Below, piece after piece: positions 1 to 4,137 of a stretch of 64,000 nt of DNA (the stretch's first letter is position 1; each line of letters starts with the position of its first letter). Source of the stretch: Pseudacidovorax sp. RU35E. GTDB lineage: Bacteria; Pseudomonadota; Gammaproteobacteria; Burkholderiales; Burkholderiaceae_C. The notes beneath the pieces were generated by a model. It was not told where the DNA came from and ran no database searches. It saw nothing but the letters and a program-made list of their open reading frames with translations. Where the stretch lies: positions 124,001 through 188,000 of the forward strand of contig NZ_FTMY01000005.1 in NCBI RefSeq assembly GCF_900156165.1. Direction: 5' to 3'. A program made the translations under genes and the position numbers.

Positions 1-325
1 CGAGCGACTCGGCTGCGCCCACACCCACGGCCAGCGACAGGCCGGACCAGCTGCGCGGCGCGAGCGGCAGCGACATGGAGAACATGAGCGAGGCCGCGTG
101 CGAGACGGGCGTGCCGCCTTCCCATTGCCTGCCCAGTCGGCCACGGCCGGCCGTCTGACGCTCGGCCACCAGAAGAGCGGGGCGGGTGTCGCCGGCGCGG
201 GCGCGGCGCATGAGCTCGGTGTTGGTGGAGTCGATCTCGTCCACCACCTCGACCCGCAGGCCGGCCCGCTGGGCGGCCAGGGCCTGATGCAGCGCGTCGA
301 CGGGCCAGCCCGCTGCCATGGCCAT
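1..325 (-). CDS. birA: BirA biotin--[acetyl-CoA-carboxylase] ligase (N-terminal part, runs off the window)
   Basis: Ligates biotin, through biotinyl-AMP, to the carrier lysine of acetyl-CoA carboxylase. About 108 codons are present; the C-terminal part lies beyond position 1. The family signatures are visible: DEIDSTNTELMRR near residue 25, then LLVAERQTAGRGRLGRQW (the biotin/AMP loop is GRGR-like), then SLMFSMSLPL. There is no N-terminal winged helix, so this is the monofunctional ligase type and not the E. coli repressor type. The chosen ATG overlaps the stop of the upstream SET gene by one base (TGATG), which suggests translational coupling. A second in-frame ATG lies two codons later. Confidence 0.9.
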   Translation of the reverse strand, partial: MAMAAGWPVDALHQALAAQRAGLRVEVVDEIDSTNTELMRRARAGDTRPALLVAERQTAGRGRLGRQWEGGTPVSHAASLMFSMSLPLAPRSWSGLSLAVGVGAAESL

Positions 326-981
326 CAGGCCTTGCCCTTCGCCTTCTTCTTGCGGGCCTTGTCGTCGCCCTGCGCCTTGCCGCTGGCCTTCTTGCCCGAC
401 TTGGCAGACTTCTCGGACTTGCCGGCCTTCTTGCCGGATTTGGCCTTCTTCGCCTTCTTGTCCTTCTTCTTGCCGCCCTTGCCCGGCACGGCCTCGGCAT
501 CCTCCGGTGGCGCCAGCAGCGTGCCGCGGCAGTCGGGCGAGCCGCACCAGCAGGGGAAGTCGGCCAGCAGTTCGGGCGTGTACGGCGAGTCGATCACCAG
601 GCCGTAGTCGTAGTTGAGTTCCTCGCCCGCGGCGATGTCGCGCAGCGCGCGGATGAACACGCGGCCGTCCTCGACCTCGGTCTCGCAGTTGGGTCCGCAG
701 GAGTGGTTGATCCACTTGGCCGAATTGCCGTGCACCTTCCCGTCGATCACATGCTTGTCGTCGATGTGGAAGTAGAAGGTGTGGTTGGGCTGCGCCGGGT
801 CGTGCGGATGGCGCCGCAACGCCTCCTTCCAGGTGATGACCTCGCCGGTGTACTCGATCACCAACTCGCCCGCCGCGATGTCCTGCGTCGCGAACACCCC
901 CCTGCCATGCACGCCGGAGCGCCGGGTCTGGATGCGGCGACCGGCAGAGGGTGCGGGCGAAGAAGGGGATTTGGAGGGCAT
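325..981 (-). CDS. SET-domain protein-lysine N-methyltransferase with a lysine-rich histone-H1-like tail
   Basis: A 218-residue protein predicted to transfer methyl groups from S-adenosylmethionine to protein lysines. The SET core runs from about residue 17 to 130: SGVHGRGVFA, EYTGEV, the cofactor-binding NHSC (92-95) and the catalytic NYDYG (123-127). A post-SET zinc motif CWCGSPDC follows at 144-151. Residues 168-218 are almost only Lys, Ala, Gly and Ser, like a histone H1 tail, and could bind DNA or be a self-methylation site. The ATG at 981 follows a poor ribosome site; in-frame starts further upstream would fall in the alternating purine/pyrimidine tract and are less likely. It is followed by birA in an overlapping pair and diverges from topB. 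The substrate is unknown. Confidence 0.88.
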   Translation of the reverse strand: MPSKSPSSPAPSAGRRIQTRRSGVHGRGVFATQDIAAGELVIEYTGEVITWKEALRRHPHDPAQPNHTFYFHIDDKHVIDGKVHGNSAKWINHSCGPNCETEVEDGRVFIRALRDIAAGEELNYDYGLVIDSPYTPELLADFPCWCGSPDCRGTLLAPPEDAEAVPGKGGKKKDKKAKKAKSGKKAGKSEKSAKSGKKASGKAQGDDKARKKKAKGKA

Positions 982-1003
982 CGCCGAGTTCTGATAGCTT
1001 GAG

Positions 1004-1036
1004 ATGTGCACATGTGCGCGCATGCGCACGTGCGCG
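1004..1036. other. 33-bp perfectly alternating purine/pyrimidine tract (potential Z-DNA)
   Basis: Every step from 1004 to 1036 alternates purine and pyrimidine, mostly GC and GT/AC dinucleotides. Nested palindromes are present, such as GCGCACGTGCGC and GCACATGTGC. Such tracts can flip to left-handed DNA under negative supercoiling. It lies in the spacer between the divergent SET and topB genes. A TATAGA-like -10 candidate for topB sits at 1049-1054, just downstream. That the tract is structural or regulatory is inference. Confidence 0.6.
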
Positions 1037-1158
1037 AGAGGCGCAGAGTATAGAGAGCCGTCCTGTGCGCCGCCGGCCCCCGCCGGCGGTGCCTTCGACC
1101 CCGCGGCGCCGCTGTGTCCGGCCCTGCGGGCGGCTCTTGCCCCATGAGAGATTTTTGG

Positions 1159-4137
1159 ATGACCAAGACCCTGGTGATTGCGGAGAAGCCGTCGGTGGCG
1201 CAGGACATCGTGCGCGCGCTCACGCCCGTGTCCGGCAAGTTCGACAAGCACGACGAGCATTTCGAGAACGACAACTACGTCGTGACCAGCGCCGTGGGCC
1301 ACCTGGTGGAGATCCAGGCCCCCGAGCAGTACGACGTCAAGCGCGGCAAGTGGAGCTTCGCCCACCTGCCGGTGATCCCGCCGCACTTCGACCTCAAGCC
1401 CGTGGACAAGACCAAGGGCCGCCTGAACGCCGTGGTGCGCCTGGCGCGCCGCAAGGACGTGACGCAGCTGGTCAACGCCTGCGACGCGGGCCGCGAGGGC
1501 GAGCTGATCTTCCGGCTGATCGAGCAGTACGCCGGCGGCGCCAAGCCGCTGGGCAAGCCGATCCGCCGGCTCTGGCTGCAGTCGATGACGCCGCAGGCCA
1601 TCCGCGACGGCTTCGACCGCCTGCGCTCCGAGCGCGAGATGCAGGGCCTGGCCGACGCCGCCCGTTCGCGCTCCGAGGCCGACTGGCTGGTGGGCATCAA
1701 CGGCACGCGGGCCATGACGGCCTTCAATTCGCGCGACGGCGGCTTCTTCCTGACCACCGTCGGCCGGGTGCAGACGCCCACGCTGTCCATCGTGGTCGAG
1801 CGCGAGGAACAGATCCGCAAGTTCGTCAGCCGCGACTACTGGGAGATCCATGCCGTCTTCCAGGCGCAGGCCGGCCAGTACCCCGGCAAGTATTTCGACC
1901 CGGCCTGGAAGAAGGCCAATGCCCCGCTGCTTCTGAACTCGCAAGGTGTGGGCGAGCCCGACCCCGAGCAGCGCGCCGACCGCCTGTGGACGGCGGCCGA
2001 GGCCCGAGCCATCGCCGAGGCGGTGCGCGGCCGTCCCGCCACCGTCACCGAAGAGAGCAAGCCCACCACCCAGGCCAGCCCGCTGCTGTTCGACCTGACC
2101 TCGCTGCAGCGCGAGGCCAACAGCCGCTTCGGCTTCTCGGCCAAGACCACGCTGGCGCTGGCCCAGTCGCTGTATGAGCGGCACAAGGCGCTGACCTATC
2201 CGCGAACGGACTCGCGCGCCCTGCCCGAGGACTACTTGCCGGTGGTCAAGGACACCCTGGGCATGCTCGCCAACAGCGGCATGCGCCACCTGGCGCCCTT
2301 CGCGCAGCAGGCCCTCGACCAGAACTACGTCAAGCCCACCAAGCGCGTGTTCGACAACGCCAAGGTGTCGGACCACTTCGCCATCATCCCCACGCTGCAG
2401 GCGCCCAGCGGCCTGTCGGAGGCCGAGCAGAAGCTGTATGACTTCGTGGTGCGGCGCTTCCTGTCGGTGTTCTTCCCCAGCGCCGAATTCCAGGTCACGA
2501 CGCGCATCAGCACCGTGGAGGCCGCGGGCAAAAAGCACAGCTTCCGCTCCGACGGCAAGGTGCTGGTCAAGCCGGGCTGGCTCGCCATCTACGGCAAGGA
2601 AGCCGCCACCGATGAGGACGAGAAGGACGGCAAGACGCTGGTGCCCGTGAAGCCCGGCGAGCAGGTGAATACCGAGAGCGCCGAGGTCAAGGCCCTCAAG
2701 ACCCGCCCGCCTGCGCGCTACAGCGAAGCCACGCTGCTGGGCGCCATGGAAGGCGCCGGCAAGCTGGTGGACGACGACGAGCTGCGCGAGGCCATGCAGG
2801 AGAAGGGCCTGGGCACGCCGGCCACCCGTGCCGCCATCATCGAAGGCCTGCTCAACGAGAAGTACATGCTGCGCGAGGGCCGCGAGCTGATCCCCACCGC
2901 CAAGGCCTTCCAGCTGACGACGCTGCTGCGCGGCCTGGGCGTGGAGGAACTCTCCAAGCCCGAACTCACCGGCGAGTGGGAATACAAGCTCGCGCAGATG
3001 GAGCAGGGCCACCTGAGCCGTGACGAGTTCATGCGCGAGATCGCCCGCATGACCGAGCACATCGTGCGCAAGGCCAAGGAATACGACCGCGACACCGTGC
3101 CCGGCGACTACGCCACGCTGTCGGCGCCGTGCCCCAACTGCGGTGGCATCGTGCGCGAGAACTACCGGCGCTTCGCCTGCACCGGCAAGTCCGGCAGCGG
3201 GCAGGACGCCTGCGGCTTCTCCTTCACCAAGTCGCCCGCCGGCCGCACCTTCGAGCTGGCCGAGGCCGAGCAGCTGGTGGCGAACAAGCACATCGGCCCG
3301 CTGGAGGGCTTCCGCTCCAAGGCCGGCTGGCCTTTCGTGGCCGAGATCGTGCTCAAGCACAGCGACGAGGACAACAACTGGAAGCTGGAGTTCGACTTCG
3401 GCGACGACGGCAAGGACCCGGCCGAGACCGGCGAGATCATCGACTTCGGCGCCGCGCCCTCGCTCGGCCCCTGCCCCAAGTGCGGCGCGGGCGTGCACGA
3501 GCTGGGCGCCAACTACGTGTGCGAGCGCTCGGTGCCCACGGCCGACCATCCCACGCCCAGCTGCGACTTCAAGACCGGCAAGGTGATCCTGCAGCAGCCG
3601 GTGGAAGAGGAGCAGATGCGCAAGCTGCTGGCCACCGGCAAGACCGACCTGCTGGACAAGTTCGTCAGCATGCGCACGCGCCGCTCCTTCAAGGCCTTCC
3701 TGGCCTGGAATGCGGAAGAGGGCAAGGTCACGTTCGAGTTCGAGCCGCGCACTTCCAAGTTCCCGCCGCGCAAGACGGCCTCGGCCGCGCCGGCCCGCGC
3801 GCCCGCTGCCAAGAAGGCGGCTGCAAAGAGTGCGACGAAGACCGCCGCCAAGGCCCCGGCGGCCAAGAAGGCGGCGGCCCCCAAGGCGCCGCGCAAGACC
3901 AGCGCCGCCGCGGGCCGCCAGCCCAGTGCGGCGCTCGCGGCGGTGATCGGCCCGGAGCCGGTGGCCCGGCCCGAGGTCATCAAGAAGCTGTGGGACTACA
4001 TCAAGGCCAACGGCCTGCAGGACGCCAAGGACAAGCGCGCCATCAACGCCGACGACAAGCTGCGTCCGCTGTTCGGGCGTGACCAAGTGTCGATGTTCGA
4101 CCTGGCCGGGATCGTGGGGAAGAACCTGGAAGGCTGA
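1159..4137 (+). CDS. topB: DNA topoisomerase III (type IA) with histone-H1-like linker and C-terminal SWIB domain
   Basis: A 992-residue type IA topoisomerase that relaxes and decatenates DNA through a single-strand break. Visible parts: TOPRIM domain (LVIAEKPSVAQDI at 6-18, ACDAGREGELIF near 107-118), active-site tyrosine 347 in LTYPRTDS, and GTPATRAAIIEGL. Two zinc-ribbon segments start near C658 and C772. Residues about 875-916 are Lys/Ala-rich like histone H1, and residues about 938-992 (PEVIKKLWDYI to MFDLAGIVG) form a SWIB/MDM2-type domain. It is longer than E. coli TopB (about 650 residues) because of this tail. The ATG at 1159 is chosen because it starts directly before TKTLVIAEKP and has a GAGAG ribosome site 8 bases upstream; an in-frame ATG at 1144 is possible. 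Confidence 0.95.
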   Translation: MTKTLVIAEKPSVAQDIVRALTPVSGKFDKHDEHFENDNYVVTSAVGHLVEIQAPEQYDVKRGKWSFAHLPVIPPHFDLKPVDKTKGRLNAVVRLARRKDVTQLVNACDAGREGELIFRLIEQYAGGAKPLGKPIRRLWLQSMTPQAIRDGFDRLRSEREMQGLADAARSRSEADWLVGINGTRAMTAFNSRDGGFFLTTVGRVQTPTLSIVVEREEQIRKFVSRDYWEIHAVFQAQAGQYPGKYFDPAWKKANAPLLLNSQGVGEPDPEQRADRLWTAAEARAIAEAVRGRPATVTEESKPTTQASPLLFDLTSLQREANSRFGFSAKTTLALAQSLYERHKALTYPRTDSRALPEDYLPVVKDTLGMLANSGMRHLAPFAQQALDQNYVKPTKRVFDNAKVSDHFAIIPTLQAPSGLSEAEQKLYDFVVRRFLSVFFPSAEFQVTTRISTVEAAGKKHSFRSDGKVLVKPGWLAIYGKEAATDEDEKDGKTLVPVKPGEQVNTESAEVKALKTRPPARYSEATLLGAMEGAGKLVDDDELREAMQEKGLGTPATRAAIIEGLLNEKYMLREGRELIPTAKAFQLTTLLRGLGVEELSKPELTGEWEYKLAQMEQGHLSRDEFMREIARMTEHIVRKAKEYDRDTVPGDYATLSAPCPNCGGIVRENYRRFACTGKSGSGQDACGFSFTKSPAGRTFELAEAEQLVANKHIGPLEGFRSKAGWPFVAEIVLKHSDEDNNWKLEFDFGDDGKDPAETGEIIDFGAAPSLGPCPKCGAGVHELGANYVCERSVPTADHPTPSCDFKTGKVILQQPVEEEQMRKLLATGKTDLLDKFVSMRTRRSFKAFLAWNAEEGKVTFEFEPRTSKFPPRKTASAAPARAPAAKKAAAKSATKTAAKAPAAKKAAAPKAPRKTSAAAGRQPSAALAAVIGPEPVARPEVIKKLWDYIKANGLQDAKDKRAINADDKLRPLFGRDQVSMFDLAGIVGKNLEG

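What the first reader, a model, noticed from the sequence alone, without database searches (positions are those of the whole stretch)
325..4137. Chromatin-like pair: SET lysine methyltransferase divergent from a topoisomerase III with an H1-like tail and SWIB domain
Seen: a bacterial SET/post-SET enzyme with a Lys-rich tail next to a TopB that carries a Lys/Ala-rich linker and SWIB domain. Established: SET and SWIB domains are mostly eukaryotic chromatin modules, and bacterial SET enzymes are known to methylate histone-like proteins. Inferred: the SET enzyme may methylate the TopB tail or its own tail to tune DNA binding.
Basis: partly seen in the sequence, partly recalled or inferred. Interest (0 to 1): 0.7.

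Follow-up and report, generated by a model that had tools for sequence, protein, structure and literature searches.

The report
Z-prone DNA between SET and topoisomerase genes
In a large family of environmental bacteria, a gene for a lysine-methylating (SET) enzyme and a gene for a DNA-untwisting enzyme sit back to back, and the DNA between them keeps a rare alternating pattern that could flip into left-handed DNA under twist, which suggests, but does not prove, a built-in twist sensor.

Summary
In detail: 325-981(-) encodes an intact KMT2-like SET/post-SET protein with a Lys tail, divergent from topoisomerase III (1159-4137,+) with a K/A linker and SWIB. The pair is conserved (24 of 24 family genomes searched; 79 of 80 nearest named loci). 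SWIB-bearing TopB is already an NCBIfam model (PRK14724). The inferred methylation of the TopB tail is not supported by comparison: the pair persists without SWIB; in a family with SET beside topB the TopB tail has one lysine; the SET Lys tail is patchy (27 of 80 loci). The genome also has an HC2/H1-like protein, a more obvious substrate. Unexpected: the 177-bp intergenic region holds a strictly alternating purine-pyrimidine tract (1004-1036, 33 bp), the only run of 24 nt or more in the 5.69-Mb genome. Runs of 15 nt or more occur in 74 of 79 such regions; in 79 loci, runs of 22 nt or more number 52 inside and none in 1,133 kb outside. Sequences differ (65 distinct), alternation persists. The computed B-to-Z threshold is about sigma -0.037. 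Best explanation: a shared divergent promoter whose Z-prone tract couples both genes to supercoiling. No bench evidence; a binding protein is the main rival.

The parts
1..325 (-). birA (biotin-protein ligase), 5' part; runs off the window; its start overlaps the SET stop (TGATG)
   Evidence: NCBIfam TIGR00121 140 bits over cut-off 83.1
325..981 (-). SET/post-SET lysine methyltransferase gene, 218 aa
601..906 (-). SET domain (residues 26-127)
   Evidence: coordinates
529..552 (-). post-SET cysteines CWCGSPDC
   Evidence: C99, C144, C146 and C151 invariant in 18 aligned SET proteins
328..480 (-). Lys-rich C-terminal tail (23 K in 51); patchy among relatives; pLDDT below 50 in the model
982..1158 (.). 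divergent intergenic region, 177 bp
991..996 (-). -10-like box of SET (TATCAG on the - strand), by eye; lies in a block that recurs in relatives
   Evidence: no sigma-70 consensus pair found
1004..1036 (.). 33-bp strictly alternating purine-pyrimidine (Z-prone) tract
1049..1054 (+). -10-like box of topB (TATAGA; ATTGTAG-type in most other genera), by eye
   Evidence: no sigma-70 consensus pair found
1159..4137 (+). topB, DNA topoisomerase III with SWIB, 992 aa
3751..3915 (+). K/A-rich H1-like linker (residues 865-919)
   Evidence: similar composition in unbroken TopBs of the family
3919..4122 (+). SWIB domain (residues 921-988)
   Evidence: SWIB region matches UAF30 and other SWIB chains

Best explanation
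The two genes are an old, probably vertically inherited divergent pair (birA <- SET | topB ->) in the Comamonadaceae-type family. They share a promoter region whose central element is a tract kept as strict purine-pyrimidine alternation. Most likely mechanism (inferred): transcription away from the region on both sides leaves negative supercoiling between the two promoters; above |sigma| of about 0.035-0.04 the tract flips to left-handed Z-DNA, absorbing twist and altering the DNA where the -35 contacts of both promoters should lie, so SET and topB output follows local torsion, and topoisomerase III, which can relax negative supercoils, feeds back on it. SET is likely an active protein-lysine methyltransferase for KA-rich DNA-binding proteins of this cell (HC2/H1-like protein, SWIB proteins, possibly the TopB linker). 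Shown here: gene pair, conservation, tract, its rarity and retention. Inferred: promoter positions, Z-DNA formation in the cell, its effect on transcription, and every SET substrate.
For: Pair: 24/24 family genomes, 79/80 nearest loci. Among 43 loci with 8.9 kb or more on both sides TopB is present in 42 and birA in 42, but the window's first gene beyond topB in 5. Tract: only run of >=24 nt in the own genome. 74 of 79 intergenic regions (window plus 78 loci) have runs >=15 nt, 59 >=20, 33 >=30. In 79 loci, runs >=18 nt: 75 inside 12.9 kb of intergenic DNA against 1 in 1,133 kb outside; >=22 nt: 52 against 0. Three more family genomes show 24, 31 and 39 nt. 65 distinct sequences in 74 tracts. 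Z threshold with published dinucleotide energies (PMC3024258 Table 1): window -0.0369, best site found in the 64 kb; 70 of 79 intergenic regions under |0.040|, 0 of 3000 control tiles. The tract lies between two recurrent -10-like blocks. PMC4060949 (passages) finds alternating patterns suppressed in beta-proteobacteria with its null model. Alternation-breaking changes: 38 of 149 against 0.405 expected, p=9e-5, at flank identity 0.8-0.9.
Against: No experiment. The substitution test is not significant for the closest pairs (10 of 38 against 0.329 expected, p=0.25). Five of 79 regions have no tract (runs of 7-11 nt), and one of 24 in the relatives set (9 nt), so it is not indispensable. Six-mers such as CACACA and CATGTG are over-represented, which shared ancestry or a binding protein could explain. 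Several family genomes have further long runs elsewhere, and G016 has its only >=22-nt run elsewhere. No consensus sigma-70 pair was found. PMC4060949 also cites an earlier study that, with a simpler null, reported a surplus of alternating patterns in beta-proteobacteria. The energy model ignores domain size and protein constraint.
Confidence: 0.45

Rival explanations
1. The tract is a cluster of binding sites for a sequence-specific regulator whose degenerate sites happen to alternate; Z-DNA plays no part.
For: CACACA, ACACAT and CATGTG are over-represented against random alternating sequence (CACACA in 17 of 65 distinct tracts against 1.6 expected); a TGCACACATGCGCG-like start recurs on the SET side.
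Against: No position in the first or last 18 tract columns is near-invariant over 65 distinct tracts, commonest base at most 47 of 65 (a weak test, as tracts differ in phase and a site at a shifting position would escape it); length runs from 15 to 53 nt.
Confidence: 0.25
2. One reading: SET methylates the TopB K/A tail (or its own tail) to tune DNA binding.
For: Pair conserved; K/A-rich C-terminal stretch in the unbroken f1 TopBs; SET motifs intact; K-rich SET tails also in Variovorax-, Polaromonas- and Limnohabitans-type loci (27 of 80); SET and TopB co-occur, 30 of 33 against 47 of 117, uncorrected.
Against: Pair kept without SWIB; one K in the TopB tails of f6 beside SET; K tails in SET-lacking genomes; SET tail K-poor in 53 of 80 loci; other KA-rich proteins available.
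Confidence: 0.13
3. Mere inherited synteny: the ancestor carried SET near topB, and the pair has stayed together without functional coupling.
For: In f6 the order is dnaA-dnaN-gyrB-SET facing topB-dprA, and in two f32 genomes SET follows gyrB with topB about 13 kb away over the contig ends; birA is kept as often as topB.
Against: The gene beyond topB changes while SET-topB stays, and the tract that joins them keeps its alternation.
Confidence: 0.14
4. SET is an injected effector that acts on host histones, as proposed for BtSET and LegAS4.
For: SET-domain similarity to the LegAS4/AnkI model, 46.9 bits, far under its cut-off of 550; BtSET of Burkholderia thailandensis described as a type III effector (PMC3980110 passages).
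Against: Conserved birA-side position in environmental genera; oriC-side position in other families. Secretion was not tested.
Confidence: 0.03

Closest known systems
NCBIfam NF011313 / PRK14724 DNA topoisomerase III (SWIB-bearing TopB)
   Same: Full-length match, 1932 bits
   Different: Nothing seen in the protein itself; the model listing says nothing of SET or the promoter tract
Chlamydial SET (NUE/cpnSET), SWIB and topoisomerase I-SWIB set
   Same: Same module types in one cell; [quoted passage not shown]
   Different: There topoisomerase I carries SWIB; here topoisomerase III does and the SET gene is its divergent neighbour. The passages read mention neither gene adjacency nor an alternating tract
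KMT2/MLL-type SET-post-SET lysine methyltransferases
   Same: Catalytic and post-SET motifs aligned
   Different: Bacterial stand-alone protein, substrate unknown
Supercoiling-autoregulated topoisomerase promoters (mycobacterial topoI)
   Same: Topoisomerase gene under a torsion-sensitive promoter (here only as a proposal)
   Different: There a 14-16 nt spacer between -35 and -10 is the proposed sensor (PMC4770202 passages); here it would be an alternating tract

Membership tests
SET-domain protein lysine methyltransferase | SET profile with the NHxC and ELxYDY-type motif residues (motifs recalled) | tested here: met
   96.7 bits over 22.4; aligned to KMT2A; N92, H93, C95, E121, L122, Y124, Y126 invariant in 18 rows
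SET-domain protein lysine methyltransferase | Methyltransferase activity on lysine | not testable with these tools
   needs an assay
PRK14724 SWIB-type topoisomerase III | Full-length score over the curated cut-off, C-terminal SWIB | tested here: met
   1932 bits over 1088; SWIB 82.7 bits over 25
Z-DNA-forming element | Long alternating purine-pyrimidine run with low B-Z energy | tested here: met
   33 bp; sigma threshold -0.0369
Z-DNA-forming element | Left-handed structure in the cell | not testable with these tools
   needs probing
Supercoiling-autoregulated topoisomerase promoter | Expression changes with superhelicity | not testable with these tools
   needs reporter or RNA data
LegAS4/AnkI effector (NF043024) | Full-length score over the cut-off of 550 | tested here: not met
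   46.9 bits, SET domain only

The most novel reading that the evidence does not exclude
A dedicated Z-DNA torsion sensor, selected for alternation rather than for sequence, has been kept across a bacterial family in the shared promoter of a topoisomerase III and a SET methyltransferase, so that left-handed DNA in that promoter sets both the relaxing enzyme and a chromatin-like lysine-methylation enzyme.
Probability: 0.38. Interest if true: 0.87.

Novelty: new variant of a known kind. Interest (0 to 1): 0.62.

Why it matters
Whether Z-DNA has an evolved role in bacteria is, to my knowledge, open. A family-wide promoter element that keeps alternation while its sequence changes, in a topoisomerase promoter, is a natural and directly testable case. 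It also gives the bacterial SET/SWIB/topoisomerase association (discussed for Chlamydiae in PMC6426960) a possible regulatory link in free-living bacteria.

Tried and rejected
TopB tail as SET partner: tested by presence/absence across an order sample; no consistent link. Within families that have both states, f4 tails are K-richer with SET, f10 the reverse, f8, f11 and f39 mixed. Co-occurrence SET x SWIB 29 of 33 against 29 of 117 (p=5e-11) and SET x TopB 30 of 33 against 47 of 117 (p=1e-7) are not corrected for kinship or genome size, so I do not lean on them.

In one search two rows (L021, L024) read as tail 0 because my motif missed them; one search shows short tails there.

A first transition/transversion count that required both sequences to be inside a run is circular and was dropped. 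A first control of Z thresholds (14 of 767 tiles under 0.040) did not exclude the intergenic regions and was replaced.

Tract upstream of topB in other families: 11 stretches of 1.1-1.3 kb from 11 genomes, longest run 12 nt. Other long runs in f1 genomes: six sites read, some in apparent coding frames, some apparently non-coding by a crude ORF caller; in G009 two further sites are hexamer-type tandem repeats by eye. AlphaFold of SET: residues 11-120 mostly pLDDT 79-96 (one block 65), residues 156-215 under 50; no fold search was run.

Paper searches bearing on this pair or on a Z-DNA element at topB. None of the listed titles or abstract openings describes it (open-licence library only; held 54, 42 and 928 papers, of which 15, 10 and 12 were listed). 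Papers seen in passages only: PMC6426960, PMC3980110, PMC3024258, PMC4060949, PMC12897701, PMC4770202; all others as listings.
Full report
What is there. The window lies on contig C16 of a 5.69-Mb genome; the near match L076 is Pseudacidovorax sp. NFM-22. On the minus strand 325-981 encodes a 218-aa SET protein, its closest solved sequences being KMT2A SET domains, with post-SET cysteines and a Lys tail of 23 K in 51 residues. Its stop codon overlaps the start of birA. On the plus strand 1159-4137 encodes topoisomerase III with a K/A linker and a SWIB domain. SWIB-bearing TopB is a described NCBIfam equivalog.

Conservation of the pair. Of 40 genomes searched as relatives (the own one included), all 24 of the window's family (f1) have the SET gene. 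In 22 of these a SWIB hit lies about 3 kb away on the opposite strand; G019 and G021 lack SWIB there. In all 24 loci the topB start was found 58-622 bp from the SET start (in G016 an apparent extra gene lies between, by eye). L084 ends before birA; L130 (Paraburkholderia ribeironis) has neither TopB nor birA in the 18.5 kb held. These 80 are the nearest by SET sequence, so the sample is biased to close kin. In 43 loci with at least 8.9 kb on both sides, TopB is found in 42, birA in 42, three further genes, mostly on the birA side, in 28-35, and the window's first gene beyond topB in 5. SWIB was found in 55 of 63 loci with enough sequence beyond the catalytic part.

Older history. In 150 genomes drawn from the order, 33 have SET (E<=1e-25), 58 have SWIB and 77 have TopB. 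SWIB in a TopB-sized frame was seen only in the four f1 genomes of that sample. SET lies within 20 kb of topB on one contig in 12 of 30 genomes that have both (four f1 divergent, four f6 convergent, G121, G161, G164, G081), and in two f32 genomes about 13 kb away over the contig ends if the contig is circular. In f6 (G028 and G163 read) the order is dnaA-dnaN-gyrB-SET facing topB-dprA, and in G054 and G099 SET follows gyrB (names tested by NCBIfam for L148, for gyrB of L150 and for dprA of L145; the rest by eye). In the other families read (f13, f11, f40, f8, f47, f19 and two G142 places) SET has other neighbours. SET was thus probably an origin-side neighbour of topoisomerase genes before the f1 arrangement; this is inference.

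Test of the methylation idea. TopB C-termini were fetched for 23 of 30 SET+ genomes (left out: four f1, G078, G093, G123) and 37 of 47 SET- genomes. Tail lysines: median 12 against 8, p=0.06. The f6 tails next to SET have one K each (2 of 2 read). K/A tails occur without SET (for example G030, 16 K). The SET protein's own tail is K-rich in 15 of 15 genomes of the genus, in one of the other nine family genomes moderately (L017, 41 residues, 20% K), and holds 8 or more K in 27 of 80 loci, among them Variovorax, Polaromonas and Limnohabitans: a patchy trait. The genome also encodes a 190-aa KA-repeat protein that matches HC2 (48.2 bits, cut-off 40; a low-complexity match) and two more SWIB hits. 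Of eight SWIB proteins of relatives read, seven carry KA-rich N-terminal stretches (nine loci tried, the own one gave none by that motif). Methylation of the TopB tail is possible but not favoured.

The intergenic region. Between the start codons lies a 33-bp run in strict purine-pyrimidine alternation, 1004-1036. A run of 24 nt occurs nowhere else in the 5.69-Mb genome in either phase (forward and control counts 5 each, all from this run); at 22 nt one further match appears from the counts. In the window plus 79 loci nearly every intergenic region has a long run, against shuffle means of 6-10. After dropping L076, near-identical to the window, 74 of 79 have 15 nt or more; the five without are L080, L099, L112, L128 and L136. 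In the set of 24 relatives, 23 have 15 nt or more; L024 has 9. Three further f1 genomes have 24, 31 and 39 nt (L233-L235). In the 79 loci, 12.9 kb of intergenic DNA holds 75 runs of 18 nt or more and the 1,133 kb outside holds one; at 22 nt or more 52 and none; at 16 nt or more 86 and 23. The tract sits between a recurrent block on the SET side and an ATTGTAG/TATAGA block on the topB side. If these are -10 boxes, the -35 positions of both promoters fall inside the tract; this is by eye, and a sigma-70 scan found no pair.

Is alternation selected? There are 65 distinct sequences among 74 tracts. Counting changes under the tract of one reference per pair, with a null that allows for the bias of choosing an unbroken reference, transversions are 38 of 149 where 0.405 is expected (46 pairs, flank identity 0.8-0.9, p=9e-5), and 10 of 38 where 0.329 is expected (23 pairs, 0.9 and above, p=0.25). 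A neutral simulation keeps a run of 15 nt or more in 48% of cases at 20% change per site and in 10% at 40%. Pyrimidine-purine steps in the tracts are CG 44%, TG 34%, CA 16%, and TA 5% against 9% expected, the direction that Z-DNA favours. With the dinucleotide energies of PMC3024258 (Table 1, passages) and a large-domain approximation of mine, the threshold is -0.0369 for the window tract, the best site found in the window (next -0.0435), and under |0.040| for 70 of 79 regions against 0 of 3000 tiles.

Where else. Upstream of topB in 11 genomes of other families the longest run is 12 nt. With 22 nt, 27 of 40 relatives have some match (list cut); the listed rows show the SET-topB site in G003, G005, G008, G017-G021, additional sites in G008 and G019-G021, and only another site in G016; G015, G022 and G023 have none at that length. 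PMC4060949 (passages) reports alternating patterns as suppressed in beta-proteobacteria under its null, while citing an earlier study with the opposite result under a simpler null. Mycobacterial topoI autoregulation is attributed to a short promoter spacer (PMC4770202, passages). No listing of my paper searches shows a Z-DNA element at topB.

Reading. The pair, its conservation and the tract are shown. That the tract forms Z-DNA in cells and tunes both genes is inference; a binding protein is the main rival. For SET, the substrate is open.

Noticed in passing
G000:C23:137204-137764(-), L247:1492-2064(-): 190-aa KA-repeat histone H1/HC2-like protein in the same genome, a candidate SET substrate.
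   Followed up: partly
window 323-327: SET stop and birA start overlap (TGATG), suggesting translational coupling of SET with biotin ligase.
   Followed up: partly
L148, L149, L150, L152: SET lies directly behind dnaA-dnaN-gyrB in two other families, and in f6 faces topB-dprA.
   Followed up: partly
L008-L013 intergenic regions (for example G009:C41:539656-539707): The tract reaches 53 bp of unbroken alternation in one clade of the genus.
   Followed up: yes
L227:2482-2537 (G020:C25): A second long alternating region in apparently non-coding DNA, flanked by CGCGGTTACG/CGTAACCGCG-type repeats.
   Followed up: no
L030 (G013:C36), L031 (G012:C170) and others: A second, about 40% identical SET paralogue in several genomes of the genus.
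   Followed up: no
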